Origin: Rhyzopertha dominica | Lineage: Eukaryota > Arthropoda > Insecta > Coleoptera > Bostrichidae | NCBI GenBank assembly: GCA_025024175.1 | Contig: QCXZ01000137.1 | Coordinates: forward strand, 16,244,001-16,308,000 | Reading direction: 5' to 3' | Length of the DNA: 64,000 nucleotides | Shown here: piece after piece, positions 35,641-57,832 of the stretch | Layout: each line of letters begins with the position of its first letter | Position numbering within the stretch: the stretch's first letter is position 1 | Notes under the pieces: model-generated | Seen by the model: only the letters and a program-made list of their open reading frames with translations | What the model was told of the DNA's origin: nothing | Databases searched by the model: none | Translations under genes and position numbers: made by a program

Positions 35641-36475
35641 AACACTGAACCTTTTTGATCAGCCTACTAAATATTTTTAAATTTGTTTTCGTTCTTGATG
35701 TCTGCAAATATAATTGACTAGACAGAACTGAGTTTTGATCAGATTGAAAGAATGGCCCTTTTTTTCTAAATTCGATAAATTTATATTTGGGTACTTTGAG
35801 TAATATATAACGTAAAATCGTGACGCGATAGCAGTTATTGTTACTATATTGTTACAGCTGCAAAACTTAAGATATAAAATATTATGACTTAAATCAGTCT
35901 TCCGGGATGATTTCTAGGTTTTGTACGGTCCATTAAAAACATAAAAGTGGTCTCACATCTTAAAAACAAAAAATTGTAATTATACTGGTCGAATTACAAG
36001 TAAAATATACTATCGAACTAAAAAAAATAATACCGAAAATATGAACAATAATCAAGATGCAGAGGTTTACTGAAATTGCTAAAAAATGTGAAATCGAAGA
36101 TACCGCGAAAACAGATCCTTTTGCATTACTAATAAATCTGTCTCAAACAATTGACTTATGATTACAGAAAAGGGTTTTGATGTGTGTTCACTCTTTATAC
36201 CTAAAAATTCCCAAATCCCATCGAAAAAAACCACTCTGTATAGTGTAGCATTTTCATTTGTCCGTAATTCTGTAGTAGACAGCTTATACTGCAAAGATCG
36301 TAGGTGCAATAAATGAAATAGGTCGTACTACTTTAGCATTATTGATTAGTATTTACGATAGAGAATAGTACTTACTAAACTAAATTCCAAATGGGATAAA
36401 TGTAACAAAGATTAACTGTACACATCCATATAATGCTCTTTTAACATTATTTACTGGTATTTTATTATTATAGAA
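35641..36475. other. Unassigned flank of the Helitron
   Basis: A 76-codon - strand frame (36079-36309) shows no known motif. Directly beside the Helitron 3' end (- strand, 36474 downward) the sequence TCTATAATAATAAAATACC resembles the proposed Helitron 5' terminus at 52196. Confidence 0.4.
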
Positions 36476-36505
36476 CTAGTATGGTGTCAACCCGCTTTGC
36501 GGGTT
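36476..36505 (-). terminator. Helitron 3' terminus: hairpin and CTAG
   Basis: On the - strand AACCCGC-aaa-GCGGGTT forms a 7-bp stem with a 3-nt loop (36505-36489). After 9 nt comes CTAG at 36479-36476, followed by T. Helitrons end in CTRR preceded by a short palindrome about 10-12 nt upstream that signals rolling-circle termination. Orientation and distance from the RepHel frame agree. Confidence 0.75.
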
Positions 36506-36569
36506 ATAAATTGTAAGATGGGGTAAATGCTACATTCCTTTTTGAAAATATAATAAAATAATTGGGTAT

Positions 36570-37570
36570 CGTGGTTTGGAATATAATACTCCACCGCCCT
36601 TTTCCCCTCCAACCGCCGATTCCCCCGGTTCTTAATTGGGTAAATGTATGCTCGGCCAACTTAATTTTTATATAAAACCTCCAATCCCGCTTGAAATTGT
36701 GCTAAAATGCATGAAAGTTATGTTTTGGAATATAATACTCCACCGCCGTTCCCCATCCACCGCCTATTCCCCTCCACCGCCTTTCCCCCTCCACCGCCGA
36801 TTCCCCCGCTTGTTGATATAGAACATACATAGTTAACCTACTTTTCGCTTATGTGAAATTTCTATCCCCGTCTTGAAATATAAATAAAATACATTAATGT
36901 CGTGTTTGGAAATATAATACTCCGCCGCCCTTGTCCACCCACCGCAAAAATATTTATTTTACCCGGGGGGGGCTCCGCCCCCCCCGGACCCCCCCCCGTC
37001 TCTATTTATTTTCTAGCCTAAATAAATTTTATAACAATTAACTTTTATATAAAATCTCTAATCCCGCTTTGAAATTGTATAAAAAGTCATAAAAGTTATG
37101 TTTGGAATATAATACTCCACCGCCGTTCCCCCTCCACCACCGATTCCCCGGTTGTTGATATATAACATACGTAGTTCACTTACTTGACTTTTATGTGAAA
37201 TTTCTAGCCCCCGCCTTGAAATATATAAGATACGTTAATGTCGTGTTTAGAAATATGGTACTCCGCCGTCCTTGTTCATCCTCCGCAAAAGTTTCTTAAC
37301 CCCCCCCGTGCATTTATATTTTACATGCGTAAATAAATTTTATGATAATTGTTTACTGTCATATACTAACATATATTCTGTTTTCAAATAGTAATTCAAT
37401 TAGTTAATTTAGTGTTTCATAATATAACACGCTATCATCGTTCCCCCTCCATCGCCGATTCCCCCGGTAGTTAATAAGCATAAATGTATAAGATGTTGTA
37501 GTTTCCCATCCACATTTTTTTATAGAAAACATATAATATACTCGGTCAACATAAAAAAGGTTCTAAACCC
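36570..37570. repeat. C-rich imperfect tandem modules (subterminal Helitron DNA)
   Basis: The phrase tttggaatataatactcc(a/g)ccgcc recurs near 36575, 36725, 36904, 37101 and 37244. It is followed by variants of gttccccctccaccgccgattcccccgg, and spaced 145-200 bp. Linkers such as ttatataaaat(c)tc(t)aatcccgc and gatatagaacatac(a/g)tag also recur. Confidence 0.8.
36963..36987. repeat. GC-only hairpin, 11-bp arms
   Basis: CCGGGGGGGGC-tcc-GCCCCCCCCGG is a perfect stem with a 3-nt loop, followed by a further run of nine Cs. It lies inside the C-rich module array, about 480 bp inside the Helitron 3' end. Confidence 0.9.
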
Positions 37571-38185: not shown

Positions 38186-38810
38186 TAGAATCTTGTTGAG
38201 AATGTGTTTGTATTGTAGAAGTATAAAGTATGTATATTATAATTATATACATTAATTATAGTATGTGATGTATGATCAGTTTAAAAATAGATAGCATTCT
38301 ATAATGCATACACATTCGTGGTACAATTTTTTTACTTAATATCTAAGACATGAAACAAATGGATAATACATTATATATGTTACAAAATGTTTATATGGCA
38401 TGCAGGTAATATAATACTAAAACTTAATTATACTTAAATATACTTAAACTAAAAAGATTCAACGGAATCTTGCCAGAGAATGCATTTGTATCGTGGAAAT
38501 ACAACTTATAAATATAAAATGACATGCATTATATATACAATACTACACTACATAAGGATATGTGATGGCTCGAGATGGACTGAATGAAATGGACTTCGGT
38601 TGTAGCTACGATGGTGGATGAAAGCCGGGTGGGGAGTGTTTATTGAAAAAAATAATCGACGGGATGTGTGGTGTAAAATGTACAGGGACGTATGGCAGAA
38701 AAATAAACCAGGTTGGATGGACAGACATGCTGACGTTCACGCCAACACATTCAAAAAATTAATATTAAATTGATAGTGAATAAAAAAATGCAACCCTTTC
38801 TGGCTTTCCT
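38186..38810. other. Helitron non-coding DNA
   Basis: Nothing recognised apart from AT-rich sequence and one GC-richer patch at 38560-38720 with no frame. Confidence 0.4.
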
Positions 38811-38811
38811 T

Positions 38812-39178
38812 GTTCGCTTGCCTACTATCGAAGCTCGCTGACTTATAATAATAGGGGCTCACATATCAAACCGCAAGGGCTGCAGCAAATTACACAAATT
38901 TAAAATTATTTGAAAGTTTTNTATAAGTCGAACTGATTGGTCTTCAATGATCACTTACCCACTGTCGAAGCCCGTTCACTTATAACAATGGGGGTTCACA
39001 CATCAGACCGTTCAGAACAACTGTATAATTAAACAAAAAATAAAAAGTAAAATTTATAATATGCTGTTCTATTTAGCCATCAATGTTCACTCACCCACTA
39101 TCGAAGCTCGCTGACTTATAATAATGAGGGCTCACGTATCGGACCGCATAGAACAGCTGCATATTTAACATTACATGT
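38812..39178. repeat. 137-bp tandem repeat, about 2.7 copies
   Basis: The motif ac(t)atcgaagctcgctgacttataataat(g/a)ggggctcac begins at 38824, 38961 and 39097, i.e. at 137 and 136 bp spacing. The second half of each unit (cagaacagctg..attaaac) also recurs. Confidence 0.85.
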
Positions 39179-39679: not shown

Positions 39680-42600
39680 TTACAGAGCGCCGCGCGTGAC
39701 AATATTTTTTGTGTATATTTTGTCAGCAGCTCTACCTTGACATGCCATTTCTACTATTTGAACTTTTAAATTTTTGCGGCTGGTTACTCTTGAAAAGCTG
39801 ACATATAACTGCCCGTGGGCGAAAGGCGGTGTTTTAAGATAAACGCCCACTTTTTTGAAAGTTTGGCCTTGACTTTTGTGCGCGGTCATCGAGAAAGCGA
39901 GTTTGACCGGAAATTGTGTGCGTGTCATTGGGAACGGTACATCCTCCTCTGTAGTTAATTTAAATTTAGGCAAAATGACTTTCTGGCCCTTAAATTTACC
40001 GCTAATACTTTCTAAAATTAAAATGTTATCTTTCATTTGTCTTACGACCAAACGTGTACCGTTGCACAAATTTAATTTAGTATTGACGTTACGTAACAGC
40101 ATCACAATTGCCCCGACTTTCAACCGCAGCTCGTGAGGAGGCAAACTCTGCGGAACTAAACTGTTTATAAATTCTGAAGTCAGTTCTGATGCGTCTTGGT
40201 CGTCACGACACTCTAACCTCGTTGCGCTGAAATAAACTCTCTCTTCCCCGGGAATTTTCTCTGTTAAAATTTTGTTATTAATTTCGATTGCGTCTTCATT
40301 GCGCATGCATAAAATGGCGACGTCGTAATAAATGGAGATGTTATCGATGGTGGTCAAATTTTGATCAAAAATGTCGTCAATGATGTTATCCGTTAATAAA
40401 TCAGCGGGGATCGCCACGTAATCCTCCGGACCACCATCCAAAGCAAAGTTTGCTTTTCCGTCGCCAACAGATAATAACCAATTAGCAAAATCTATTTCCT
40501 CGGGGAGAACACGCATGTTCTGAGTTAAATGTAAAATTGAAACGTGGCTCCACAAATTAAAATTTTTGGCGCATTGTTCGGCGGCGTCAACGGGACTACC
40601 GTGTTTGACGACTGGCAAGCACTGACGGAAGTCCCCACCAAAAACTACTATTTTGCCGCCGAACGGCTTATCGTTGGTCATAAGCTCGGTTAATTTGTCG
40701 TGGACGACTTTCAAGACGTACTTCGAACTCATAGAAACTTCGTCCCATATAATTATTGAACTGTTTATAATTTTGCGGGCCTTCTCTGAACGATTATCCA
40801 AACTGGATACCGAAGTTTCATGTAGTTGGAGCGGCACCATGAACGCTGAATGTACAGTGGCGCCATCCGGTAACAAACTCGCTGCAATTCCCGATGCGGC
40901 CATGCACAAATATGACATGTCTCGGCTTTTTGCGTACGCGCATATCAGCTCGAAAAGATATGATTTCCCCGTACCACCAGGACCGTCGACCATGAAGAGC
41001 GTGCGATCGTTCCGCTTTTCGAGACTATTAACGATCGCGTCAAATGCAGCTTTTTGCTCTGTGTTACAATTGTTTAATTTGTCGGAATAATTTGGATCTA
41101 GCGGAGATGCGATCTGCTCTTCATCGTCGATCGTAACATGCTCCGTAGGTACGGGTAGACCTATGGCTTGATTGTTTGTGCCCAGACTTCGTAAAATTTT
41201 GTCTATGCGGCTTAATGCCGCTTCGTGAGCCCTGTCTGAAGTATGATGTTTGCGTAAGAAATCTTCAGACAGAAGGTCTTTAAATTTCTCCCACAAATCT
41301 AGAGGGTTGCTGGGTTGTGCGAAAACGCAAAGTAATGCAAAAAAGTTTCGTAGCTGATACGGTACCGCGCTTAAGCTCGCTTCGCGCAATGCAGTTTCCC
41401 ACTGCACGTCTGAATCTAACAACCCCATCGCTTCAGCAGCCTCTTTGAAGGTGGCGTACACTTTGCCGTCGACCGTACGGACGTCTTGGAAACTGGTTTT
41501 ACCACGAACATGAAGTAAACAAAGACGGAGGTAAAACTTTTCAACATCGCGAGGTGAAACTGCGTACATTCTAACTACAATATTGAATTTATTTTGACGC
41601 GCGTGCCAAGCTAATTTTTTTCTATCCCACGTGTAATGCTCTGGAATTTCATAATAAGCGTACTGTTGAGCTTCTTGTAATGTTTTATTTAAATCAAACC
41701 AACCGGTTAACATCGTGGGTTTGTCCGCGGCTGTTTGTACGGCTTGTTCTTCCTCTCCCTCCTGGAAGTATACAATTTGTTCGTTGGGCAAATGTACGGG
41801 CAATCTGGTGACTGAATGGGACTGTTTAAAAATTTTGTATTCACAAATGATATAATGTCCTTCATTCGCCGTCATGTAACGACAATCGAGATAACTATTG
41901 CATTCATTGAAACTTACTTCTACACGAGCAGCATCGAAACCTTTATAAACATACAAATAAATATATTTGACCGATTTTATAGATGAACATATTTCGACGT
42001 TAATATGACATCTGTATCGTAGAAGTAAATTCCTATTGTAAGGAACGATCCAAGAATTATCTACAATGACATCTTTACCGTCGCGTTTAACTATAATGTG
42101 AATATTATTATTAGGTCTTTTATAAACCGGATAGCCTCTAACGTTCAAAAGAGTTTCCTCGCTGAAGGCTTTAGGAAACGCTCTTTCGCACTTTTTTGGA
42201 TCNTCCTTTCTGCATTGTAAATTCGATTGTTCGCTACATGGGCCATGAGTCATGTGTCTTAATACCAAAGAAGTTAATAGATCATTTTCATCGTTATTGG
42301 GAATGTAGGCTTGGACAACCCGATCGACTGCCGTAGTATCGGTGAATTTAAAAGGATCGTCTAAAACTATTAACATGTGGCAATGCGGCAGTCCTCTTTT
42401 TTGAAACTCAATGACTCTAATCCAAGCCTTGACAGTACCGAAAATATGCTTGTTTGTGATTTGATTCATTAAATCTTCCAACTTCAACTGAAATACTCTA
42501 TTAACAATGTCAGGTCTGTCAATGTATGTTTCTCCTTTTCTCAAATGTTCTTTAATTTCATCCCAACCGGGATTGGCCGTGAAAGTGAGAAAAATGTCTG

Positions 42601-45523
42601 GCCTTCCATATTTTTGGACTATGCTCATGGCGTCAAAGTATCGCTCCGTATACATGCGCGGCGAACATCTATGTGTACTGGGAAGAATGACTGCTTTACC
42701 AGGAGGTAGATTTAGATCGTCCACGCCACCTTTCACGTAATCGCATAAACCTTTGTATAGATCCGCTCGCAATTTGCTTTGGTTACATTGTATCCAGTTT
42801 AAGTTATTCGCTTCGATTTTTAAAGCGGCGTCGACGATGAATTGTTGAGTAAGGCGGCCAACCTTAAAAATTCTATTTCGTTCGATCGGTTCGTTTTTCG
42901 GTTGGCGATAGTGCAGCAAATATTTGTAGTATTTGTGCATCGTCAGTGTTTGTCCGGTGGGGAGTTTGGTAAAGGGTTGCCAACCTGGTTCTCCCGAAGG
43001 AAAGATAACGGGGTACATAAAGGCGTCAATGTTGGGCGATAAAATATTAAGTCTTCTGTAGTGAATTTTGCCATCATTGGACTTAGGGTAAAAAACCATG
43101 TCACGATGAAAAGGCGGCCTCCCATCGACGCTCTGGAAAACCATCGCAACTTCCGTTGCTCCGGTGGCGTTGTTGGGCAGGTTATATCGTCTGGGGTCGT
43201 CACGACGATCGCGAATGATCGCTACCTTTGCGCTTGGTGTTTTGGTAGGATTTTGAGCAAGTTGTTGTTCATAAACTTCGCGTAACATTAAAAGTGATTG
43301 CGCAAACGGATTGTACTGTTTAAAACACTGATCTAAATCATTTAATAATGTATTATCTAAATCGGCAGTGAAATTGTCAGTTCGTACTTTTGTCGATTCC
43401 GCCGTGTCGAGAACGTAAAGTTGTGCGTATTTCGGCCGGCCGATGTTCGGGATTAGCGATTCGCAAATTTGATGGATGAACATCCCCTGCGTTTTGAAAG
43501 TGAATGCACCACGACCGGCAGTCTCACGCACAAGTTTCGTCTCGCCTAACGACGCAAACGCAAACGAACTGTTGTAGCTACGGATATTTTGAACGAAATT
43601 TTTAGATTTTGGATGTAAGTTATTTAAAAGGTCCCTGATCAATTCCGGCATTGGTGTTAAATAATCAAAGATAATTTTACCTTTTTCGCAACATTTTACG
43701 TACGCGCCTCTAAAAGCCTCATCTTTAAAATACAACGATTCGCAAAAATTACAGACCAAATTCATTTTTCCGCAACTGTGAGGCTTTACTTTTACAATAT
43801 CGATAACTTGCCAAGCCCAAGGTAAACGATCGTTAATGATTAGATTTTGAACTAAGGGAGTTGAAATATTTGTCGCACCAACATTTGACCTAGTAAGGGG
43901 GGCTTTTCTAGGGCGTCCACCTTTATTACGTGAAGGCACGGGAGATGGCATTTGAATAGAAGCCATAGGGGAAGATGTAGTCGATAAAATTTGAGAAGTG
44001 CAGTCTACTATAGGTGTTCCTTCACGAGAAGTCCGTTTATTTTCTGTGATAGCTGGAACTGAAATAGGCAGAGGAGACGCGGGTCTGACGAAATCGGTTG
44101 TAAGAGATGAAATTGAAATAATGGATGGCGTGGGAGAAGATGTATCGGAAGTAACGTCAACATTTTGAAATCGTGGAGGCATTCTTTTGCGAGGGCGACC
44201 GCCTCTTTTCTTGTTAGTGTTAGAAGTGGACAAAGGTGGTACAACAGGTTGCGGGAAAACTGTCGGAGACGATGTTACGCCTGCTTGCATAGATTCGGTA
44301 GATACAAAACGACCCGTTTTATTACGTTGTTTGGGTACAGTTTGAGAAGACGACGAAAGTGTTTTAGATTGGCTTTTAGGCGTAAAGTTACGTAACAGGA
44401 GACGACTTGTTTGGTCACGCTTGGATGTAGATGAAGCTAGAGGAGAAGACGATGCTGACGGATTTAAATTCGTCGGGGATGATGTTACAGAGGAAATGCT
44501 GGAACTAATGTCAGAATTGGATGTGGTGGAAGGAAGTGGTCTTTTAGAAGGCCGTCCTCTACGTTTTGGTGATTGTTCAGGAATTGGTGGTACAATATGA
44601 GATACATCAGGGATATTTGGAACATTTGTAATTGCAACTTCCATATCAACATCAACATTTGAAGTAGTCGATGATGGTGAACGATTGATTGGAGTTGTCT
44701 TGGTGCAACGACGTTTTCGGGGGCGTCCCCGTTTCCCAGGTGGTTTAGACGTTTCAGAAGTAAAGCTGATCGCTGAATCGGTGGTAGGCGTGGCGGGCGT
44801 TGTAGGGGAAGGTGGTGCTCGTTTGGATGCAGCCGGTTGGTCGATGGAAAGTTGAGATATTTGACCAACAAATGCTTCACTGAGCGATAATCTTTTCGAT
44901 CTGCGAGTTGTCACACGTGTCGATGAAGGTGCCACATTAATATTCGACGGGAAAGGTGTTACAATACCAGATTGTAAAATGTTACAAAAGTGCTGACGTT
45001 GTTGTGTGACGTCGTAGGTAATATCTGAAGGGTTGCCGCCTTCGGCCAGAACGATGGCATTTGCTACAGAATACAATCCGCACGAATTAAGATCGTGTTG
45101 CTGCTGAACAGCATGGAATTGTGTTTCGGCGGAAGGGTAGAGTTTAGATATATAATCCTTCATGGAACCGTAAGAAATGGAATTAGCGTTCAATGAATCG
45201 AAAACATGTACGGTGCCATTTTCAAATAAAACTGCAAGCCAATGGCCTATTTGGTCGGCATAGCGTTCGTGATCAATTTGTGACCAATTAACGCATGAGG
45301 CAGAAGGCTGATTTGAGGTTAGGCTGTCGCCGAAAAGAATTTGAATGTCGCGCCTTCTGTTTATTCGACACTCGAGGTTATCAAGAAGTTCGTGATTGTA
45401 ATATAATTGAACTTCTTGCATGTCGTATTGTGTATAGTGCCGATTAAAGATTTCAATAAATGTACCCATCAATCCGGTATCAATGTAGCTGCCCGGTTGC
45501 AAGATGTGTTGTATTGAAGCCAT
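39680..45523 (-). CDS. Helitron replicase-helicase with N-terminal Ulp1-like protease
   Basis: This is a 1947-residue single frame whose only blemish is one ambiguous base (near 42203). Residues 1-180 form a Ulp1/C48-like cysteine protease: HWLAVLF with His94, HVFDSLN with Asp109, QQHDLNSCG with Gln142 and Cys148. Residues 200-560 are a Ser/Thr/Pro-rich linker with four AT-hooks (RGRPRK 265, RGRPSK 322, GGRPRK 441 and 535). A CX2C..CC finger lies at 584-613. The Helitron Rep region follows: FLTFTANPGWDE (978), HUH motif GLPHCHM (His1047, His1049), CX2-like finger near 1096-1112, and the Tyr cluster KYIYLYVYKG (1186-1195). The PIF1 helicase has Walker A GPGGTGKS (1514), Walker B IIWDEVSM (1591), GGDFRQCLPV and AHKSQGQT (1881). 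It would nick, unwind and transfer a single strand in the nucleus. A splice acceptor lies 16 nt before the ATG. No frameshift is visible, so it could be recently active. Confidence 0.93.
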   Translation of the reverse strand: MASIQHILQPGSYIDTGLMGTFIEIFNRHYTQYDMQEVQLYYNHELLDNLECRINRRRDIQILFGDSLTSNQPSASCVNWSQIDHERYADQIGHWLAVLFENGTVHVFDSLNANSISYGSMKDYISKLYPSAETQFHAVQQQHDLNSCGLYSVANAIVLAEGGNPSDITYDVTQQRQHFCNILQSGIVTPFPSNINVAPSSTRVTTRRSKRLSLSEAFVGQISQLSIDQPAASKRAPPSPTTPATPTTDSAISFTSETSKPPGKRGRPRKRRCTKTTPINRSPSSTTSNVDVDMEVAITNVPNIPDVSHIVPPIPEQSPKRRGRPSKRPLPSTTSNSDISSSISSVTSSPTNLNPSASSSPLASSTSKRDQTSRLLLRNFTPKSQSKTLSSSSQTVPKQRNKTGRFVSTESMQAGVTSSPTVFPQPVVPPLSTSNTNKKRGGRPRKRMPPRFQNVDVTSDTSSPTPSIISISSLTTDFVRPASPLPISVPAITENKRTSREGTPIVDCTSQILSTTSSPMASIQMPSPVPSRNKGGRPRKAPLTRSNVGATNISTPLVQNLIINDRLPWAWQVIDIVKVKPHSCGKMNLVCNFCESLYFKDEAFRGAYVKCCEKGKIIFDYLTPMPELIRDLLNNLHPKSKNFVQNIRSYNSSFAFASLGETKLVRETAGRGAFTFKTQGMFIHQICESLIPNIGRPKYAQLYVLDTAESTKVRTDNFTADLDNTLLNDLDQCFKQYNPFAQSLLMLREVYEQQLAQNPTKTPSAKVAIIRDRRDDPRRYNLPNNATGATEVAMVFQSVDGRPPFHRDMVFYPKSNDGKIHYRRLNILSPNIDAFMYPVIFPSGEPGWQPFTKLPTGQTLTMHKYYKYLLHYRQPKNEPIERNRIFKVGRLTQQFIVDAALKIEANNLNWIQCNQSKLRADLYKGLCDYVKGGVDDLNLPPGKAVILPSTHRCSPRMYTERYFDAMSIVQKYGRPDIFLTFTANPGWDEIKEHLRKGETYIDRPDIVNRVFQLKLEDLMNQITNKHIFGTVKAWIRVIEFQKRGLPHCHMLIVLDDPFKFTDTTAVDRVVQAYIPNNDENDLLTSLVLRHMTHGPCSEQSNLQCRKXDPKKCERAFPKAFSEETLLNVRGYPVYKRPNNNIHIIVKRDGKDVIVDNSWIVPYNRNLLLRYRCHINVEICSSIKSVKYIYLYVYKGFDAARVEVSFNECNSYLDCRYMTANEGHYIICEYKIFKQSHSVTRLPVHLPNEQIVYFQEGEEEQAVQTAADKPTMLTGWFDLNKTLQEAQQYAYYEIPEHYTWDRKKLAWHARQNKFNIVVRMYAVSPRDVEKFYLRLCLLHVRGKTSFQDVRTVDGKVYATFKEAAEAMGLLDSDVQWETALREASLSAVPYQLRNFFALLCVFAQPSNPLDLWEKFKDLLSEDFLRKHHTSDRAHEAALSRIDKILRSLGTNNQAIGLPVPTEHVTIDDEEQIASPLDPNYSDKLNNCNTEQKAAFDAIVNSLEKRNDRTLFMVDGPGGTGKSYLFELICAYAKSRDMSYLCMAASGIAASLLPDGATVHSAFMVPLQLHETSVSSLDNRSEKARKIINSSIIIWDEVSMSSKYVLKVVHDKLTELMTNDKPFGGKIVVFGGDFRQCLPVVKHGSPVDAAEQCAKNFNLWSHVSILHLTQNMRVLPEEIDFANWLLSVGDGKANFALDGGPEDYVAIPADLLTDNIIDDIFDQNLTTIDNISIYYDVAILCMRNEDAIEINNKILTEKIPGEERVYFSATRLECRDDQDASELTSEFINSLVPQSLPPHELRLKVGAIVMLLRNVNTKLNLCNGTRLVVRQMKDNILILESISGKFKGQKVILPKFKLTTEEDVPFPMTRTQFPVKLAFSMTAHKSQGQTFKKVGVYLKTPPFAHGQLYVSFSRVTSRKNLKVQIVEMACQGRAADKIYTKNIVTRGAL

Positions 45524-45553
45524 CCTTCCGTGAAGATATCTGTATGTAAAAAA
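45523..45553 (-). promoter_or_regulatory. Splice acceptor directly upstream of the Helitron start codon
   Basis: On the - strand TTTTTTACATACAG is followed by ATATCTTCACGGAAGG and ATG, so the coding exon would start at 45539. The pyrimidine-rich tract, the CAG and the short leader argue that the ATG is reached by splicing from exons further upstream, across the satellite array. Confidence 0.6.
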
Positions 45554-45619
45554 TATTTATTTGTATAAACATATATATATGAAAATAAAGTACATAATAA
45601 ATTTTTTGTATTGAAATTG

Positions 45620-48600
45620 TTGGAAAACGTGAACTATATTACGTTATCGAATACTCTTTGTTATCCTTGGTAGCACTGTTGTTTGAAAAAAAATTCTAAG
45701 ATTTAAAATGAGGAAATTTTAAGTTTAGTTCAGTAGTGGAAATATGGCAACGTTGTGTGAATGTGCTGTGTTGCGTTATGGAGTACCCTTTGCTATCCTT
45801 GGTAGCACTATTATTTGGAAAAAAANTCCAAAGTTTACAATGAGAAACCTTCAAGTTTANAAAATCTCANCTTTGGTTCGATAATGGAAATTTGACAACA
45901 CCGTGTAAATGTGCTATATTACGTAATCGAGTACCTTTTGCTATCCTAGCCAGCACTGTTATTTGGAAAAAAAATAAGATTTAAAATGAGAAACTTTCAA
46001 GTTTGGTTCAGTATTGGAAATTTGGCAACGCTGTGGGAATGTGCTATATTATGTAATCGAGTATCATTTGCTATCCTTGCTAGCACTGTTATTTGAAAAA
46101 AAAATTCTAAAATTTAAAATGAGAAAATCTCAAGTTTGGTTCAGCAATGGAAATCTGACAACACTGTGTGAATGTGTTATATTGCATTATCCAGTGCTCT
46201 TTGCTATCATTCCTAGCACTGTTATTTGTAAAAAAAATTCTATAATTTAAAATCAAAAAATCTCAAGTTTGGTTCAATAATGGAAATTTGGCAACGCTGT
46301 AAGAATTTGCTATATTATGTAATCGAGTACCCTTTGCTATCCTTGCACTGTTATTTGAAAAAAAATTCTAAAATTTAAAATCAGAAAATCTCAAGTACGG
46401 TTCAATAATGGAAATCTGACAACGCTGTGTGAATGTGCTATATTGCGTTATCGAGTACCTTTGTTATCCCTAGTAGCAGTGTTATTTGAAAGAAAAATTC
46501 TAAGATTTAAAATGAGAAACTTTCAGGTTTGGTTCAGTAGTGGAAATTTGGCAACGCTGTGTGAATGTGCTATATTGCGTTATCGAATGCCCTTTGCTAT
46601 CCTTGGTAGCACTGTTGTTTGAAAAAAAATATTCTAAGATTTAAAATGAGAGAATCCAAGTTTGGTTCGGTAATGGAAATCTGGCAACGCTGTATGAATG
46701 TGGTATATCACGTTATCGAGTAGGCTTTGCTATCCTTGCTAACATTGTTATTTGGAAAAAAAATTAAGATTTAAAATGAAAAACTTTTAAGTTTGGTTCA
46801 GTATTGGAAATTTGGCAACGCTGTATGAATGTATATTATGTAATCGAGTATCATTTGCTATCCTTGCTAACATTGTTATTTGAAAAAAAAATTATAAGAT
46901 TTAAAATGAGAAAATCTCAAGTTTGGTTCAGCAATGGAAATCTGACAACACTGTGCGAATGTGTTATATTGTGTTATCCAGTGCCCTTTGCTATACTTGG
47001 TAGCACTGTTATTTGTGAAATAAATTCTAAAATTTAAAATAAAAAATCTCAAGTTTGGTTCAATAATGGACATTTGGCAACGCTGTAAGAATGTGCTATA
47101 TTATGTAATCGAGTACCCTTTGCCATCCTTGCTAACACTGTTATTTGAAAAAAAATTCTAAGATTTAAAATCAGAAAATCTCAAGTACGGTTCAATAATT
47201 GAAATCTGACAACGCTGTGTGAATGTGCTATATTGCGTTATCGAGTACCTTTGTTATCCTTGGTAGCACTGTTATTTGAAATTAAAATTCTAAGATTTAA
47301 AATGAGATACTTTCAAGTTTGGTTCAGTAGTGGAAATTTGGCAACGCTGTGTGAATGTGCTATATTGCGTTATCGAATGCCCTTTGCTATCCTTGGTAGC
47401 ACTGTTGTTTGAAAAAAAAATATTCTAAGATTTAAAATGAGAGAATCCGAGTNTGGTTCGGTAATGTAAATCTGGCAACGCTGTATGAATGTGGTATATC
47501 ACGTTATCGAGTAGGCTTTGCTATCCTTGCTAACACTGTTATTTGGAAAAAAGTTAAGATTTAAAATTAGAAACTTTCAAGTTTGGTTTAGTATTGGAAA
47601 TTTGGCAACGCTGTATGAATGTGCTATATTATGTAATCGAGTATCATTTGCTATCCTTGCTAGCACTGTTATTTGAAAAAAAAATTCTAAAATTTAAAAT
47701 GAGAAAATCTCAAGTTTGGTTCAGCAATGGAAATATGACAACACTGTGTGAATGTGTTATATTGCATTATCCAGTGCTCTTTGCTATCATTGGTAGCACT
47801 GTTATTTGTAAAAAAAAAATTCTAAAATTTAAAATCAAAAAATCTCAAGTTTGGTTCAATAATGGAAATTTGGCAACGCTGTAAGAATGTGCTATATTAT
47901 GTAATCGAGTACCCTTTGCTATCCTTGCACTGTTATTTGAAAAAAAATTCTAAAATTTAAAATCAGAAAATCTCAAGTACGGTTCAATAATGGAAATCTG
48001 ACAACGCTGTGTGAATGTGCTATATTGCGTTATCGAGTACCTTTGTTATCCCTAGTAGCAGTGTTATTTGAAAAAAAAATTCTAAGATTTAAAATGAGAA
48101 ANTTTCAAGTTTNGTTCAGTAGTGGAAATTTGGCAACGCTGTGTGAATGTGCTATATTGCGTTATCGAATGCCCTTTGCTATCCTTGGTAGCACTGTTGT
48201 TTGAAAAAAAAATATTCTAAGATTTAAAATGAGAGAATCCAAGTTTGGTTCCGTAATGGAAATCTGGCAACGCTGTATGAATGTGGTATATCACGTTATC
48301 GAGTAGGCTTTGCTATCCTTGCTAACATTGTTATTTGGAAAAAAAATTAAGATTTAAAATGAGAAACTTTCAAGTTTGGTTCAGTATTGGAAATTTGGCA
48401 ACGCTGTATGAGTGTATATTATGTAATCGAGTATCATTTGCTATCCTTGCTAACACTGTTATTTGAAAAAAAAATATAAGATTTAAAATGAGAAAATCTC
48501 AAGTTTGGTTCAGCAATGGAAATCTGACAACACTGTGTGAATGTGTTATATTGCGTTATCCAGTGCCCTTTGCTATCCTTGGTAGCACTGTTATTTGTGA

Positions 48601-50000
48601 AATAAATTCTAAAATTTAAAATAAAAAAATCTCAAGTTTGGTTCAATAATGGAAATTTGGCAACGCTGTAAGAATGTGCTATATTATGTAATCGAGTACC
48701 CTTTGCTATCCTTGCTAGCACTGTTATTTGAAAAAAAAATTCTAAGATTTAAAATCAAAAAGTCTCAAGTACGGTTCAATAATGGAAATCTGACAACGCT
48801 GTGTGAATGTGCTATATTGCGTTATCGAGTACCTTTGTTACCCTTGGTAGCACTGTTATTTGAAATAAAAATTCTAAGATTTAAAATGAGATACTTTCAA
48901 GTTTGGTTCAGTAGTGGAAATTTGGCAACGCTGTGTGAATGGTGTGAATGTGCTATATTGCGTTATCGAGTACCTTTGTTACNCTTGGTAGCACTGTTAT
49001 TTGAAATAAAAATTCTAAGANTTAAAATGAGAAAATCCGAGNTTGGTNCGGTAATGGAAATCTGGCAACGCTGTANGAATGTGGTATATCACGTTATCGA
49101 GTAGGCTTTGCTATCCTTGCTNACACTGTTATTTGGAAAAAAAATTAAGATTTAAAATTAGAAACTTTCAAGTTTGGTTCAGTNTTGGAAATTTGGCAAC
49201 GCTGTGTGAATGTGCTATATTATGTAATCGAGTACCATTTGCTATCCTTGCAGGCACTGTTATTTGAAAATAAAATCGAAAATTTAAAATGAGAAAATCT
49301 CAAGTTTGGTTCAGCAATGAAAATCTGACAACACTGTGTGAATGTGTTATATTGCATTATCCAGTGCTCTTTGCTATCACTGGTAGCACTGTTATTTGTA
49401 AAAAAAAATCTAAAATTTAAAATAAAAAAATCTCACGTTTGGTTCAATAATGAAAATTTGGCAACGCTGTAAGAATGTGCTATATTATGTAATCGAGTAC
49501 CCTTTGCTAACCTTGCACTGTTATTTGAAAAAAAAATTCTAAAATTTAAAATCAGAAAATCTCAAGTACGGTTCAATAATGGAAATCTGACAACGCTGTG
49601 TGAATGTGCTATATTGCGTTATCGAGTACCTTTGTTATCCCTAGTAGCAGTGTTATTTGAAAAAAAAAATTCTAAGATTTAAAATGAGAAACTTTTAAGT
49701 TTGGTTCAGTAGTAGAAATTTGGCAACGCTGTGTGAATATACTGTATTGCATTATCGGATATTTGTTGGCTGCTATCCGTTATTTGAAAAAACATGCCAG
49801 ATTTTAAATGAGAAAATTTCAAGTTTGGTTTAATACGGGAAATCTGGTAACACTGTGTGAATTTACTATATTGCGTTATCGATTAGCCTGTGGCTGCTAC
49901 CAGTGTCATTAAAAAATATCTAGAATCTGAAATGAAAAAATGCAAAATTACTTCAGTACTGGAAGTCTGCAAACGCTGTCTAAATGGGCTATAATAATAT
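45620..50000. repeat. 131-bp satellite with 6-mer (~790 bp) higher-order repeat
   Basis: There are about 33 monomers of ~131 bp, each containing ctatccttg(g/c)tagcactgttatttgaaaa, then ctaagatttaaaatgagaaa, caagtttggttcag.a.tgga and caacgctgt.tgaatgtgctatatt. Specific variants recur every sixth monomer: the same marker falls at 46014, 46804, 47594, ~48384 and ~49183, spacing 790, 790, 790, ~799. One monomer in each set has ggctttgctatcc, another a shortened tatccttgcactg, and so on. The outer monomers (45620-46000 and 49745-50000) are the most diverged, as expected when homogenisation acts on the centre. The unit length is not a multiple of three, so the short frames inside are not genes. Confidence 0.95.
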
Positions 50001-50406
50001 TATAGTATGTAATAATAGTGTAGAACTATAAATAGTAAGTTCATAAACACTTTACAAACAAATTACTGTAGAAAAAAGAGTTATATTGTACTAAAATTAA
50101 TTAATACATCACCCTGTCCCTCTCAAACTATTATTTGTAAAATATTAATAGGTGACAAAAAATAATGGTACATAAACGTGATATAAAATCGAGTGCGCCA
50201 CATAAAATTTCTAATTAGAAATAAGAGATGTTAATTGAAATAAAATTTCAACCAATGTACTTTTATTACATCTTACTTTACATATATTAAAAGACAAAAA
50301 CGATAATTAATATATGTCAATGCAAATGAGAAAAGTACATAAAGTACAATCGAGGAGAAAAAAATTACTTGCATAAATATGGATTTTCAAAATATTATTG
50401 ACTTAC
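50001..50406 (-). other. Presumed Helitron intron sequence
   Basis: AT-rich and without recognisable features, between the satellite array and the small exon. Confidence 0.4.
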
Positions 50407-51169: not shown

Positions 51170-52055
51170 TCCGGGACGTCACTAAAACAGCTGGCCGCTA
51201 ACTGGTCAGTGTATCCCGGCCCGTATCGTAAAAACGCGTATAACGCTCGATTTCGGACAAATTAAATATACCAAGAGCCCTAACCGAAATGAAAGTCAAT
51301 TCGTACTGCCCTTCTTGAGACAAATAAAACACGGCTCCAAACTAAATGGATCGGTAAATAATGGAAAACCCCCAATGCTGGTTGCACAGCAAAAATGAAC
51401 ATGTGATGAAACAGTGACAAATCGCTTACAGTAAGAAACTAACGCAGTAACAACCCCAAGGCGACCGTGTGATTTATTGAATAAAAATCTGAAACATCCC
51501 GCCTGTTTGTAAATTTGAATAGCATAAATTAATACCAAAAAAAATGCCTGGAGTTGTGCAAAGCTCAGTGACCGATTTCTAACCTTAAAACACACTCCCG
51601 TGATGCAGATATGCTCTTAAACAACGCAAACGTTTTAAACAAAAAATGTGCTGCATTGAGATGTTTTAAAAGTGTCAAAAAATGGTCAGGTTTGACAAAG
51701 TGTCATCAAATCCTAGAAGAAAATTGTGGTGGAATTTTAACGTATCAAAGGTTGAGCATTATCCCAATATTCAAAAGCTTACCTGAATTAACTGTACTGA
51801 ACTGAAAATCGTAATATAGGGCGTTGAAATTTTACGGACCGAAGTAAATATCGATTTGCACGGCTCTCTTCATCAGGGTAATAATATACCCCAAAGTTAA
51901 CATGGGACAAAAGCACTGATTAATATGAACTGCACAGCGATAAATCATCAACTAAGCAAACTATCATAAACAATAAGCTCTAAAAATGAACCTACCTTGT
52001 AAAAAAATGAAATATCCAGGAAATGTATGCGGCACGGAGCACTCAAATGCTGTTA
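51170..52055. repeat. Diverged direct repeat, copy 1 (proposed Helitron leader region)
   Basis: It matches 52795-53690 over about 880 bp from ccgggacg through agctggccgctaactggt, tcgtactgcccttcttga, ccaaggcgaccgtgtgattt and cgtaatatagggcgttgaaatt. Near its right end the - strand has a splice-donor-like ACAAG|GTAGGT (exon end 51996), conserved in the other copy as ACAAG|GTGAGT (exon end 53636). Confidence 0.75.
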
Positions 52056-52449
52056 TATTTTCAACAACGTTTATCTGTTTTCTTTTATGATTACACTTTA
52101 CTCTCGCTACTTAACCTAACTTGACAACGCGTCACCTAATGCCGGCGTATTATTTTAAATTCCTAAAGTAACTTTTATTTATTTTATTATTATAGATAAA
52201 GTAACTATATAGATTAAGTAGCGCAACCATCCGCCATGTTTGGGATTTTTCAAAGCGGCAAGTTCAAAAGTTGGCAGATTTTTAGAGGTTGCAAATATTA
52301 TATAAAAGTTAGTCGATTTTTTCAGGGTTCTATGTTCTTTTTCCTATAAAAAAATCGATTAATGTTAAATAAGGTACATAAAAATCATCATGAATTTTAT
52401 TGAAATATTCAAATTTTAATTAAAAAAAAGACAATTTCAAAATAAACAA

Positions 52450-52776
52450 TTATTTATTAACAGCTACACGCATGGCCATGCTGCGGCTGGCATGAGCTTC
52501 TTCCGAAAAATCTTTTTTATATTTGGAATTCAAAAGAAAATATAGCCTACATTTAAAAAATAATTTTACAGTTTTTTCAAAAATATTGTGACAATTTAAA
52601 ATTGTATCTGGACAACCAATAATATTGATTACATTATTTACAAAATTATCTAAACTTAATCTATTATTTACAATATCATCTTCAGATGCCCTAAAACGAA
52701 GTTCCATATTATATATACAATTATACAAATCTATTGTTGGATGTTGTAAACAATTAACTTTAAATTCTTTACACAC
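52450..52776 (-). pseudogene. Unrecognised 108-codon frame, possibly transposase C-terminus
   Basis: The - strand frame includes ASEDDIVNNRLSLDNFVNNV and FEKTVKLFFKCRLYFLLNSK, and ends in RVAVNK before a TAA followed by an AATAAA-like signal. The helical basic C-terminal pattern is loosely reminiscent of THAP/P-like transposase ends, but I cannot name it. It lies between the two direct repeats 51170-52055 and 52795-53690, so it may be an inserted or captured gene fragment. Confidence 0.35.
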
Positions 52777-52794
52777 AGTTACTTTATTAAATTC

Positions 52795-53690
52795 CGGGAC
52801 GCCAACGCCACCTCGTAAACGTTGGCGTCATTAAAACANCTGGCCGCTAACTGGTTAGTATCTCCGGGCCCGGANCGTTGTAAAAACGCGTATAACCCCT
52901 GATTTTGGAGCCCCAAATTAAACATACCAAGAGTCCCAACCGAAATGAAAATCAATTCGTACTGCCCTTCTTGAAACGAATAAAACACGACTCCAAACTT
53001 AACTAAATAAATCGGTAAATAATGAAAAACTTCCAACACTGGTGGCACAGCAGAAATGAACAGGTGATCAAACAGCGACAAACCGTTTACAATAAAAAAT
53101 TAACGCAATAACAAACCCAAGGCGACCGTGTGATTTATGAAATAAAAAACTGAAACACCTCGCACATTTGTAAATTGCATAGGTAGCACAAATTAACATG
53201 AATAAATACATGGAGCTGTGCGAAGCTGAGTGGTAAATTTCTAACCGTGAAACACACTCCCGTGATGCAGATATGGTCCATAACAACGTAAATGTTTTAA
53301 GCAAAGAATATGCTGCATTGAGAAGTTTTAAAAGTGTCAAAAAATAGTCAGATCCTAGAGGAAAACCGTGGTTGTATCGAAGGTTAAGCATTACGCCAAT
53401 ATTTAAAATCGTACCTCAAAATAACTACTGCGCCGAAAATCGTAATATAGGGCGTTGAAATTTGAGGGACCGAAGTGAATATCGATTTGAACGGTTCTCT
53501 TTTGAACAGGTAATACTATACCCCAAAGTTAGCACCGGACAAAAACACTGATCAACACGAACTACGCGGCGATACGCCGTTAACTAAGCAATCTATCATA
53601 AAAAATAAGCTCTTAAAATTAATAGCATTACTCACCTTGTACAAAAAAAGAAGATATATCCAATAAATGTAAGATATGGGGCACTGCACA
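52795..53690. repeat. Diverged direct repeat, copy 2
   Basis: Partner of 51170-52055 with an offset of about 1.63 kb. It begins with cgggacgccaacgccacct...acgttggcgtca, itself a small inverted repeat absent from copy 1. It keeps a donor-like ACAAG|GTGAGT on the - strand at 53636. Confidence 0.75.
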
Positions 53691-53849
53691 AGAAGTTTGC
53701 ACTAATTCACTAATCACTATTCACAAACTGTCAAATCATCAGGTTAGAAGCTGGGGTATGTGCTGAAGTGCACGTACCGAAAACACATGCTCGATGTGGG
53801 CACTTGCTGGAACGGAAGGGCCTCTGAAAAATGGATTAATTCGTGTGAA

Positions 53850-55205
53850 AAATAGGAACGAAAATCGGAATATTTTCGTTATTACGGGGTGTACGCGAAT
53901 GGGTTTTTTTGCTATAAAGAGATCAATTTTGTATATATCCCATAAACCGATTTAAAACAATTTTAGCGGTTCCGTTTTCTTTTAATCGAAGCTAAAAAAG
54001 TTGGATGCACCGTTTCATCACAAATCATTCAGCGAAATCTAACATAATGAGAGAACCATAATGCTCAGGTGAACGCAGTTTTTTGCATTTAGCAGCCTAA
54101 AAATGTACCTTTACCGTGTACACTTTAAAAAAATCTCTACCTATTCACCTGTCTTAAAATCGAGGTCGAAGTGCGCTGAAACCCGTGATTATTTAGCGAA
54201 TGTAGAATTCCACTATTATTGCTATACTGAAGAAAGTATTATGAATATTGGGATGCGGTTTTTGGATTCGGATGGGGCAAGATTATATCTAACAGGTATT
54301 CAACTTTCAAAAACTTTCCGCCATTCAATTAGTTGTAAATCGAGAATGAATATCACACTTTTTTTATGACCGCATCAAACTGAAAATGTATTTTTAACCT
54401 TTATTTTAAGTTAGAGGAATCGAAATAAAACCATAATGTATTGTGTTTTGAAATGGCCTATTTTACATGTTCATGTCGAAAGTTATGCTGAATTTCCACC
54501 AATTGGACCAAATGAAAGAAAAACACATACACGTTGTTTCTGTTCATAAACCTCTGGAGTCGTAATTTAAGCTAACTAAAAATAATTGGAATCGGAACGC
54601 AACATCCTGTACATATAGATTATGGATGTAGAAGGATTGTCTATAATGTAGCGGGGATCACTAAGAAAATGCGATAAATCGAAAATCCATCGGTATTGTG
54701 ATGTCAAAAATAAAAACGGAAATTAGAATATTTCCGTAATTATATTATTTCTTGTTATAAAAAGATTAATGTTGTATCCATCGCAAAGAATGATTTAAAT
54801 AAGTTTTCGTCTTTCATTTTTTCTTTAATCGAAGCTAGTACGTTTAGAATGCATTATTTTTAACAAACTTTTCAGCTAAATGTAATGTAATTAGAGAACT
54901 ATATTGTTTACATAAATGTGTGTTTTTGCATTAATAAGTAGCCTAAAAGTATATCTTTACTGTGTGCAGTTTTGAAAAACTTTTACTTATTTTAAAATCG
55001 AGGTCGAAAAGCTTCGAAGCCGAAACAAATGTAAAATTCTATCATTATTGCTGTACTGAAGAAAGTATTCTAGATATTAGCATACGGCTTTTGAATTTGT
55101 GTGGGGAAAGGCTATATGTAACATATGTTCCATTTTCAGAAACTTAAATTAATTGTAAATCGAAGTTGAAGATCACTTTTTTGACGGCCACATCAGATTG
55201 AAACT
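53850..55205. repeat. Diverged tandem duplication of a ~530-bp block
   Basis: Block A (53850-54385) and block B (54695-55205) share, in order, cggaatatttt(c)cgt.att, tttaatcgaagcta, gtagcctaaaa.gta, aaaatcgaggtcgaa, attattgct.tactgaagaaagtatt and ttgtaaatcgaa. The 310-bp spacer is unrelated. The frames inside (54103-54369, 54962-55147) are not conserved as protein in any convincing way. Confidence 0.7.
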
Positions 55206-57480
55206 AACGTTGAAACAAAAAGCGAAGGGATAGGAGTGAAATACACCGTAGATAAGTAACATGGGTGCAAAAGAAAAATTTTCCAAAATGTAATCAAAAT
55301 CGGTGAAAAAGTGCAGCAATTATCGAAAAAAAAAAGTTTTTTTAAATGCCACAATTTTAAGGTCACATTTTCGAAATGTTACCCGCCAGGGGGACGGGAT
55401 GGTACCAAAAGATAGCCCCGAATGTAAACTTTTATACAATATATGAACGGTGCGGATTAGTTGATAACCGGCGTCGCTATGACATCAGTGCGGATCTATC
55501 ATGGAAAAGTGAATAAAGGCGTCGCGATGCACAGCTCAATTAAAAAATTCACCGTCGTCGTCCCCGACAACGCAGAAACACATGTGATGTGGTAAAAGAA
55601 AAGGAAAGAAATGTACTTTCACATTTACCATAATAAAGGGTACAAAATGAAATTAGTATTACAGTAATGAAAGAAGTATATACTAATATTTAGTGAGTAA
55701 AATGTGATAAAGAAAAATACATATAAAAGTGTTAGGAAACTGCTAATTTATTATTGAATATTATAGAAAAATTTAGATGGTTGAAAAAGCAATAATGAAA
55801 TCATAACAGAAATGTTTGAATACTTTTAAATTAATAATTCGTGTCTTTAGAAACCACGTGAATCTGTAAATATATAAAAATATACACTAATAAACAACAG
55901 TAATAAAAATAAATACCAGCAATATCTTACCTTGGTAACATTGTTATTCTCTATTGCAAATTATAAAATTTGAAAAGTATGTTTAAACTACAGTGACAAT
56001 CACATATGTTAGAACATTCTGGTTTTCTCAGTATGGAAAAAAAACAATAATAGTAGATTACATTATTGGAAACATTGTTTAAAAACTATTGTTATTATAA
56101 ATTATAAATATTGAAAATTAATAAGAGTAGATATACTTTACTACGACTGTAGTTATGATTCTATGTCAAAATGTCACGTCAACCAATTAATTAGCTATGT
56201 TGCCAATCATGTCAAACAATAAATTGACGTAATTTTAGAAACATAGGTATGTATGTAATATCAGATAATATTTTAAATGACTAAAATACTATAATATACA
56301 TTAAGTTTGTTAAAGCTAAATTGTTTACTCAAAATATTTATATATCAAATATAATCTGGATCTATTCAGTAAGGAATGCTTAATTTAAATTTAGAGAAAA
56401 TGTCGAAGGAAAATAAAACTGCAGGTAAACTTAAATAAAAGTGTAATATATTAATTTAAGAAATAAAACAAATAACTTAAATAATAATATTTACATAATA
56501 AACTAATAAAACATTATTGATAAATAAAAAAAATGTAAAAATAAAAAAATTACAATTTTTTTTATAAGAAAGAGACGTACCTTATACCTATACAATTTTA
56601 TAAATATTAATATATGAAAGTATATGTATCTATTAAATGTATTAAATAATAAGCCTTTATATTAAGAAATAAGCCAAATTCTGTTTGTTTAATACATTAT
56701 TTGTTCTTTGTTGAAGTGATTAAATTAAAATATAATTACTATTATCTGTGATTAATATGGAAATTGTTATTTATTAGAAAATGTGTAAAAATAAAAAATA
56801 CCCTAAGATTGTGTCTGACAATCAATCACCACAAGAGATAGTTTAATTTGTACAATACCTAAACAACAACGGAAGGTATCATCGACTTACTCGATCCATT
56901 TTTTATATCTATTATAATAATAAATTTAATATAAAATAGCAATTATTTTAATTGATACTAACAATATATCCTAATGATGACAGTAAAAAAGAAACCTAAG
57001 AAAAAGTTATTGTAATAACAGATTTATATACATATTGAAAAAGTATTGCCAACATTAAGTGGAAATGAAAACTGAAATTGTTTGATTGTCACTTAAACGT
57101 ACTACCATTATACTACCAAATTCTATCCATATTCAAAGTAAAAATGACATACCTATATAGTATATATACAGATTTTTTATAAATGATTCAAACATCCATA
57201 GTGCGTATAGAAATTATCGATTAAATCAATTTACCACCTTTCAAGAAAGTAACATACTTGTCATTTATCGATTTTTGAATTATTTGATATATTTTAATAT
57301 GAGAAAACACCTCAGCGTGTGTATTTTCAACATATTCTGTAGTGTTTTGTGGGATAATTAACTTTAAAGTTGCTTGTCCAACAGCAAATATATAACAATA
57401 ATTAACAAAATATGACAATTCAAATGTAAAATGAATAAAACAGACAAAAATAGCATTGACAAATGCTTTAAAGAGAATTC
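55206..57480. other. AT-rich stretch, nothing recognised
   Basis: No gene or clear repeat, apart from a GC-richer patch with CG dinucleotides at 55440-55575. Confidence 0.4.
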
Positions 57481-57800: not shown

Positions 57801-57832
57801 AATCACATATAATGATGAAATATAAAACTTAC

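What the first reader, a model, noticed from the sequence alone, without database searches (positions are those of the whole stretch)
45620..50000. Alpha-satellite-like higher-order repeat inside a Helitron
Seen: ~33 monomers of ~131 bp grouped in sixes, with the same variant series recurring every 790 bp over four to five periods and diverged monomers at both edges. Such nested periodicity is typical of centromeric satellites. Here it sits 100 bp from a transposase start codon. Helitrons can carry minisatellites, and rolling-circle replication is a plausible way to amplify them. This could show a satellite being born within, or spread by, a Helitron.
Basis: partly seen in the sequence, partly recalled or inferred. 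Interest (0 to 1): 0.75.

Follow-up and report, generated by a model that had tools for sequence, protein, structure and literature searches.

The report
Nested tandem repeat beside Helitron gene
Next to the enzyme gene of a rolling-circle jumping gene lies a short block of about 33 repeats that grew by repeated block duplication into nested six-fold and twelve-fold units; it resembles centromere DNA in layout only and is most likely an internal repeat block of a kind already known from other Helitrons.

Summary
About 33 monomers, mostly 128-135 bp, fill 45,591-50,007. Core monomers six apart are 93.6% identical, twelve apart 96.5%, against 81.8-83.1% at spacings that are not multiples of six. 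So two levels are nested: a 790-bp six-mer in alternating forms A and B, and a 1,582-bp twelve-mer. Divergence falls level by level (17.5, 6.3, 3.1%), which suits stepwise duplication by unequal exchange better than one burst. The last B unit holds a chimeric monomer in an N-rich stretch, so exact copy number is unsafe.

The neighbour is a real Helitron: an unbroken 1,947-aa Rep-PIF1 frame and a textbook 3' end. Its 5' end is not proven; the best candidate (52,196) puts the array inside. Chance adjacency is about 0.5% in a simple placement model. Internal arrays are known in Helitrons, including the 5' part of D. virilis Helitron-2 (PMC3833285, passages). Nothing points to a centromere; CENP-B-box-like sites are at chance level. 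No other copy could be examined: the host-genome search did not complete. New member of a known kind.

The parts
45591..50007 (.). whole tandem array, monomers m2-m35 (clear homology in m2 begins about 45,640)
45591..45990 (.). left edge: m2 (only its right half is monomer-like), m3 (diverged), m4 (last quarter 97% type 5, in phase with the core; first quarter 94% type 2, out of phase; middle 74-88%)
45991..46780 (.). six-mer unit A1 (m5-m10), 790 bp
46781..47570 (.). six-mer unit B1 (m11-m16), 790 bp
47571..48363 (.). six-mer unit A2 (m17-m22), 793 bp; 98.1% identical to A1, 94.7% to B1
48364..49161 (.). six-mer unit B2 (m23-m28), 798 bp; 95.1% identical to B1 as a whole (it holds m27); its monomers other than m27 are 96.0-97.0% like those of B1
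49162..49688 (.). partial unit A3 (m29-m32), 527 bp; 96.0% and 96.4% like A1 and A2, 91.7% and 93.2% like B1 and B2 over the same monomers
48891..49031 (.). chimeric monomer m27 (141 bp): left part type 4, right part a 91-base match (N counted as match) to m26 at distance 141; 7 of the window's 33 N lie in 48,983-49,184
49689..50007 (.). right edge: m33 (first quarter best matched by type 4, 94%, type 0 being 91%; later part diverged), m34, partial m35
39680..45523 (-). Helitron transposase ORF, 1,947 aa, no internal stop (one N): Helitron_like_N (865-1052), PIF1 helicase (1487-1693), Pif1 2B; N-terminal part with only sub-threshold similarity to Ulp1/C48 protease
36476..36505 (-). Helitron 3' end: 17-nt palindrome AACCCGC-AAA-GCGGGTT, 9-nt spacer, CTAG, followed by T at 36,475
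52180..52196 (-). best candidate for the Helitron 5' end: A|TCTATAATAATAAAATA
36458..36474 (-). second exact copy of the same 17-mer, one base beyond the Helitron 3' end (possible 5' end of another Helitron)
38785..39168 (-). second, diverged repeat block: 3 copies spaced 136-137 bp (67-77% alike), 0.5 kb after the transposase stop
36549..37459 (-). third, diverged repeat block near the 3' end: 6 copies spaced 146-195 bp (60-86% like the reference copy)
45540..45553 (-). splice-acceptor-like stretch (TTTTTTACATACAG) 16 nt upstream of the transposase ATG; weak, 15% of the 2,911 AGs scored on this strand do as well

Best explanation
The array is an internal, non-coding tandem-repeat block in the 5' part of a large canonical Helitron that runs on the minus strand (probably 52,196 to 36,476, 15.7 kb), between the element's 5' end and its transposase gene. 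It grew in steps: an approximately 132-bp unit was duplicated and diverged; a run of six was then duplicated as a block; that pair (A+B, 1,582 bp) was duplicated again. The most likely process is unequal exchange or long-unit slippage between misaligned repeats, with local conversion; this keeps the centre alike and lets the edges decay. Shown: the Helitron protein and 3' end, the nested order, the falling divergence, breakpoints inside monomers. Inferred: that the 5' end lies beyond the array, and that unequal exchange rather than replication of the Helitron made the duplications. No function is needed for the array; a role in expression (for example inside a 5' leader intron) is possible but only weakly hinted at.
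For: Rep-PIF1 protein over threshold; H1047, H1049, Y1187 and Y1191 present in 116, 117, 116 and 117 of 117 aligned relatives. 3' end with 17-nt palindrome, CTAG and flanking T on the transposase strand: of 13 hairpin-CTRR sites in the window, 4 are followed by T, and this is the only one of those that lies downstream of the ORF on its strand; the last 70 nt fold at z = -2.86, 1 of 200 shuffles as good. It fits the canonical definition in PMC4067079 (passage). The 17-mer at the candidate 5' end recurs exactly only beside the 3' end; none of 100 shuffles held an exact match. Array edge within 113 bp of the ORF: 226 of 49,366 random placements (0.5%). No monomer homology above shuffles in 30,000-36,475 or 52,197-58,000. 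The element has two further repeat blocks. Divergence 17.5% between types (302 pairs), 6.3% A against B (30), 3.1% within A or B (19), m27 left out. Among columns that vary over A1, B1, A2, B2, 24 have the A-B-A-B pattern and none pairs the units otherwise. Core limits lie inside m4 and m33, in phase. Precedent: D. virilis Helitron-2 (9,141 bp) has four 153-154-bp repeats at nt 237-1087 (PMC3833285, passages); central satellite-like arrays are called frequent in Helitrons/Helentrons (PMC12628747, passages).
Against: The 5' end is one AT-rich candidate picked by likeness to four strings recalled from memory and then tested with its own sequence; with up to 2 mismatches 3 of 100 shuffles gave at least 2 matches. 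A stretch inside the proposed element (51,177-52,054) has a 79%-identical relative just outside it (52,826-53,697), which fits host DNA or another transposon better than Helitron DNA and would suit a 5' end nearer the array. The monomer is not similar to the rest of the element. No second copy of the Helitron was available to prove the borders. A/B order is not clean everywhere: type 4 has one fixed A/B column, m28 is equally (0.96) like A and B copies, and whole-unit B1-B2 (95.1%) is barely above B1-A2 (94.7%) because of m27. Position 1190 of the transposase is L where 113 of 117 relatives have K, so activity is not assured.
Confidence: 0.7

Rival explanations
1. The array is a small host satellite or minisatellite outside the Helitron; the Helitron inserted next to its edge, with its 5' end somewhere in 45,524-45,640.
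For: Six TC dinucleotides lie there on the minus strand (starting at 45,533, 45,536, 45,582, 45,614, 45,624, 45,632; read); one, 45,536, is preceded by A, and the one at 45,582 begins an AT-rich run. Hel_c35 in Cotesia vestalis is directly followed by six tandem copies of a 396-bp repeat outside its 3' end (PMC5714489, section 13 read). The monomer shares nothing with the element.
Against: The A-preceded start lies 13 nt from the ATG and leaves almost no leader; the other five break the A|T insertion rule. Chance adjacency is about 0.5%. A satellite cut by a clean insertion would be expected also below 36,475, unless the insertion fell just off its edge; no homology was found in 30,000-36,475.
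Confidence: 0.22
2. The array was made by rolling-circle replication of the Helitron (read-through or truncated circles), as proposed for plant centromeric Helitrons.
For: The mechanism is proposed for Helitrons (Xiong et al. 2016, as summarised in PMC12628747, passages) and is said to amplify 5' sequences more often; this array is 5' of the gene. Three separate repeat blocks in one element.
Against: One rolling-circle burst predicts equal divergence among all units; three layers are seen. The array is made of a short monomer without similarity to the element, not of truncated Helitrons. Stepwise rolling-circle events cannot be told from unequal exchange here.
Confidence: 0.12
3. Assembly error: the array is collapsed, expanded or mis-ordered.
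For: 13 of the window's 33 N lie in the array (binomial p = 1.2e-7), 7 of them in 48,983-49,184 beside the chimeric m27, which is 9 bases longer than m26. Sequence after that seam (m28-m32) could be misplaced.
Against: The longest exact repeat in the array is 184 bp, short enough for reads of several hundred bases to place (the read type used is unknown). A1, B1, A2 and m23-m26 of B2 lie before the seam and already show both levels. A1 and A2 differ at 12 bases plus 3 gap columns.
Confidence: 0.1
4. A centromeric or centromere-seeding satellite in the alpha-satellite sense.
For: Nested higher-order order with decayed edges.
Against: 4.4 kb only; monomer about 132 bp; CENP-B-box-like sites with up to one mismatch number 4 in the window against 4.02 expected, one of them at the array edge. 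Nested order follows from unequal exchange in any long-lived array.
Confidence: 0.03

Closest known systems
D. virilis Helitron-2 / DINE-TR1 with 154TR repeats (PMC3833285, PMC6922343; passages read)
   Same: medium-length tandem repeats in the 5' part of an insect Helitron; arrays of more than 10 copies occur in three species
   Different: 154-bp unit, four copies in the consensus element; the passages read mention no higher-order order; the repeat is abundant in that genome, which could not be tested here
Cg_HINE elements of Crassostrea gigas (PMC7492417, passages read)
   Same: satellite-like central repeats, mostly 140-180 bp, in Helitron-type elements; longest array 29.3 monomers; 8.5-21% diversity between monomers
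   Different: non-autonomous Helentrons with subterminal inverted repeats; here a coding Helitron of canonical type
Hel_c35 of Cotesia vestalis (PMC5714489, passages and section 13 read)
   Same: insect Helitron with a single Rep/Hel ORF and a short tandem array directly beside it
   Different: 396-bp repeat, six copies, outside the 3' end
Alpha satellite higher-order repeats (recalled; no sequence compared)
   Same: monomers of distinct types repeated as a block, block copies more alike than neighbouring monomers
   Different: monomer length, array length, CENP-B-box-like sites only at chance level, no evidence of a centromere

Membership tests
Canonical Helitron | Rep endonuclease with HxH and two tyrosines | tested here: met
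   PF14214 E 1.5e-57; H1047/H1049 and Y1187/Y1191 present in 116-117 of 117 relatives aligned
Canonical Helitron | PIF1-type helicase in the same protein | tested here: met
   PF05970 E 5.7e-56, PF21530; GPGGTGKS at 1514-1521
Canonical Helitron | 3' CTRR with a 16-20-nt palindrome about 11 bp from the end | tested here: met
   17-nt palindrome, 9-nt spacer, CTAG; definition from PMC4067079 passage
Canonical Helitron | 5' TC end | tested here: inconclusive
   best candidate 52,196; no second copy to prove it
Canonical Helitron | insertion between A and T, no target duplication | tested here: inconclusive
   T follows the 3' end; A precedes the candidate 5' end, valid only if that end is right
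Helentron | endonuclease domain after the helicase (recalled) | tested here: not met
   no such Pfam domain among the 7 families found in the ORF
Helitron-internal tandem-repeat block (DINE-TR1, Cg_HINE kind) | array lies between the element's termini | tested here: inconclusive
   true if the 5' end is at 52,196; adjacency unlikely by chance
Helitron-internal tandem-repeat block (DINE-TR1, Cg_HINE kind) | same array in other copies of the element | not testable with these tools
   The genome search did not complete
Alpha satellite / centromeric satellite | higher-order repeat of typed monomers | tested here: met
Alpha satellite / centromeric satellite | 171-bp monomer (recalled) | tested here: not met
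   core monomers 128-141 bp
Alpha satellite / centromeric satellite | CENP-B box in a subset of monomers (consensus recalled) | tested here: not met
   no exact site; 4 sites with 1 mismatch in the window, 4.02 expected, one at the array edge
Alpha satellite / centromeric satellite | centromeric location, very long arrays | not testable with these tools
   no chromosome map; array is 4.4 kb in this assembly

The most novel reading that the evidence does not exclude
A Helitron whose own replication cycle builds nested higher-order repeats in its 5' leader and exports them, so that satellite-grade structure (monomer, six-mer, twelve-mer) arises inside a mobile element before any centromere or heterochromatin is involved.
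Probability: 0.08. Interest if true: 0.7.

Novelty: new member of a known kind. Interest (0 to 1): 0.38.

Why it matters
It is a compact, readable record of how a higher-order repeat forms: three divergence layers in 4.4 kb, with the limits of the homogenised core visible inside monomers at both edges. Because it lies beside a coding Helitron, comparison of other copies could time array growth against transposition. It also shows that nested periodicity alone is no sign of a centromere.

Tried and rejected
Search for the monomer elsewhere: window BLAST up to E 10 listed many short matches outside the array, the best 32 bases at 84% and E 0.001 (23,516-23,547) in the AT-rich part of the monomer, all others E 0.16 or worse. 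Exact patterns in viral contigs and prokaryote contigs and a distant search of plasmids gave none; these collections are not of animal genomes, so the misses say little. Relatives of the transposase in viral contigs: 4 stretches matched a pattern, none confirmed. A first protein search with the whole ORF gave 4 hits because its words came from the first 500, low-complexity residues; the domain region gave 1,722 relatives among 7,209 candidates, 120 listed. Helitron 3' scan: 13 sites in all; 7 score above the one I accept (8.5), namely two at 14.7 (3,789 and 3,794), two at 13.5 (29,976 and 30,011, both in the 208-bp palindrome), one at 9.5 (3,829) and two at 8.8 (53,742 and 53,747). Of these only 53,742 (CTGA, minus strand) is followed by T, and it lies upstream of the ORF, so it cannot be this element's 3' end. 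Dimer or trimer sub-order within the six-mer: no clear signal (lags 2 to 5 all 0.818-0.829). One monomer folded as single-stranded DNA is no more stable than shuffles (m17, z = 0.62). N-terminal protease domain: only sub-threshold (C48 E 0.074); in the PDB search a Ulp1-like chain came third at E 0.89, behind unrelated chains; one 40-residue stretch shared with P0111 at E 0.058. Open frames across array monomers (up to 159 aa) follow from a unit length near a multiple of 3 and were not taken as genes. Splice acceptor near the ATG: 15% of AGs score as well on a crude score, so only a hint. Rfam at gathering threshold: none.
Full report
What is there. Tandem Repeats Finder reports one long array at 45,861-49,889. 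A wrap-around alignment to the monomer consensus extends it to 45,591-50,007 and cuts it into 35 segments, of which the first is negligible and the last partial. The 28 core monomers m5-m32 are 128-141 bp long. The edge monomers m2, m3, m33 and m34 are 55-77% identical to the other full monomers (partial m35 scores lower still) and m4 is intermediate. By quarters, m2 is monomer-like only in its right half (up to 91-94%), so it is truncated rather than evenly decayed.

Order. For m5-m32, identity at lag 6 is 0.936, at lag 12 0.965 and at lag 18 0.922; the other lags from 1 to 17 lie between 0.818 and 0.831. In 5,000 random orders the best lag-6 and lag-12 values were 0.885 and 0.890. The tree agrees: types 0, 1 and 3 are starred branches, type 2 has 92/91, type 4 66/77, and type 5 needs two changes, m4 being apart from m10, m16, m22 and m28, which form a 100/99 branch. 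By quarters, 106 of 108 core pieces (27 monomers, m27 left out) are best or equally best matched by the expected type. So the six-fold claim stands.

Second level. Six-mers alternate in two forms: pairs at multiples of 12 average 0.964 (20 pairs) and odd multiples of 6 average 0.932 (32 pairs), a difference not reached in 10,000 within-type permutations. Over the four units A1, B1, A2, B2 the variable columns (without N) fall into the patterns A-B-A-B 24, B2 alone different 25, B1 alone 15, A1 alone 9, A2 alone 5, other 1; no column pairs A1 with B1 or A1 with B2. Whole units: A1-A2 98.1%, B1-B2 95.1%, A-B pairs 93.0-94.7%; the partial A3 is 96.0-96.4% like A1 and A2 and 91.7-93.2% like B1 and B2. 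Against a clean pattern: B1-B2 as wholes barely exceed B1-A2, because B2 holds m27 (the other five B1-B2 monomer pairs are 96.0-97.0%); m28 is 0.96 like both A and B copies; type 4 has a single fixed A/B column and m15 (B) is 99.2% like m21 (A), which suggests local conversion.

How it grew. Mean divergence is 17.5% between types, 6.3% between A and B units of one type and 3.1% within A or within B (m27 excluded). The longer the unit, the younger its duplication. At the left edge the last quarter of m4 is type 5 (97%), in phase with the core, while its first quarter is 94% type 2 and its middle fits no type well. At the right edge the first quarter of m33 is best matched by type 4 (94%, type 0 91%), in phase, and its third quarter fits none (38-47%). 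Limits of the core that fall inside monomers, in register, are what homologous but misaligned exchange leaves. This is the expected behaviour of any long-lived tandem array and needs no centromere.

A flaw in the sequence. Monomer m27 is type 4 on its left and continues as a 91-base match of m26's right part at distance 141. It is followed by type 5, so a simple single exchange does not explain it. Thirteen of the window's 33 N fall in the array (p = 1.2e-7) and 7 of them in 48,983-49,184. A gene-conversion patch is possible, but a weak assembly join is as good. Both levels are established by units that lie before it, and no exact repeat in the array exceeds 184 bp, so wholesale mis-assembly is unlikely.

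The Helitron. On the minus strand, 45,523-39,680 encodes 1,947 aa with no stop. It has Helitron_like_N, PIF1 helicase and Pif1 2B domains and the Rep catalytic residues. Its N-terminus has only sub-threshold similarity to Ulp1-type proteases. The 120 relatives listed are about 35-44% identical; the named ones include arthropods, a tardigrade, other animals and plants, and many are unnamed; the host was not identified. 3.2 kb beyond the stop lies a textbook 3' end. Between stop and 3' end there are two more, old repeat blocks, so this element tends to hold tandem repeats.

Inside or beside. I ranked TC starts above the ORF by likeness to four 5'-end strings recalled from memory; 52,196, preceded by A, came first (14 of 15 matches), ahead of 60,625 (13, preceded by T) and several at 12. 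The same 17-mer occurs once more, one base beyond the 3' end. If 52,196 is the start, the element is 15.7 kb and the array lies between start and gene. Against it stand the AT-rich nature of the motif, the choice after the fact, and a relative of an inside stretch just outside. A start close to the gene would leave the array outside; of six TC dinucleotides there only 45,536 is preceded by A, 13 nt from the ATG. Chance adjacency is about 0.5%. I put the inside reading at about 0.75-0.8.

Known background. Central arrays of satellite-like repeats are said to occur often in Helitrons and Helentrons (PMC12628747, passages). D. virilis Helitron-2 has them at nt 237-1087 of 9,141 (PMC3833285, passages), and this 154TR repeat also forms expanded arrays in heterochromatin (PMC12628747, passages), although PMC6922343 argues that it should not be called a satellite (passages). 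Oyster Cg_HINE arrays reach 29.3 monomers (PMC7492417, passages). A search for papers holding both 'Helitron' and 'higher-order repeat' listed 23. I saw their titles and the starts of abstracts, and passages of one (PMC7754599); nothing in that describes a higher-order repeat inside a Helitron, but I did not read the other 22, and most subscription papers are not held. Novelty is therefore rated as a new member of a known kind, with the nested order as its special trait.

Noticed in passing
window 29890-30097: A 208-bp palindrome, 98% self-complementary with hardly any loop: a fold-back element or a fold-back sequencing artefact.
   Followed up: partly
window 10775-11814 and 13467-14324: Two related blocks with self-complementary parts of 0.7-1.0 kb (84-89% alike, in both orientations), with a further diverged piece at 1-165: perhaps a fold-back type transposon.
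   Followed up: no
window 57407-63993: Several diverged direct copies of one region; one copy holds a 185-aa frame (57829-58386, minus) of the GDSL/SGNH hydrolase kind, also matching the OSK domain.
   Followed up: partly
window 51177-52054 and 52826-53697: Direct repeat pair (79%) with donor-like ACAAG|GT early in each copy; beside it a 125-aa frame (52450-52827, minus) without a Pfam match that from memory resembles the end of P-element/THAP9 transposases.
   Followed up: partly
window 36474 (minus strand): A Helitron-like 5' start directly beyond the 3' end of this Helitron, one base apart: possibly two Helitrons head to tail.
   Followed up: partly
window 36549-37459: The repeat block near the Helitron 3' end hints at dimeric order: against the reference copy at 36880, copies two apart are 66% and 86% alike, neighbours 71% and 60%; a 112-bp pair 377 bp apart is 79% alike.
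   Followed up: no
window 41954-41956 (residue 1190 of the transposase): L where 113 of 117 relatives have K, between the two catalytic tyrosines (at least one relative also has L): the copy may not be active.
   Followed up: no
window 24272-24497: A small array of a 38-bp unit that also scores with a 76-bp dimer period, perhaps another short higher-order repeat.
   Followed up: no
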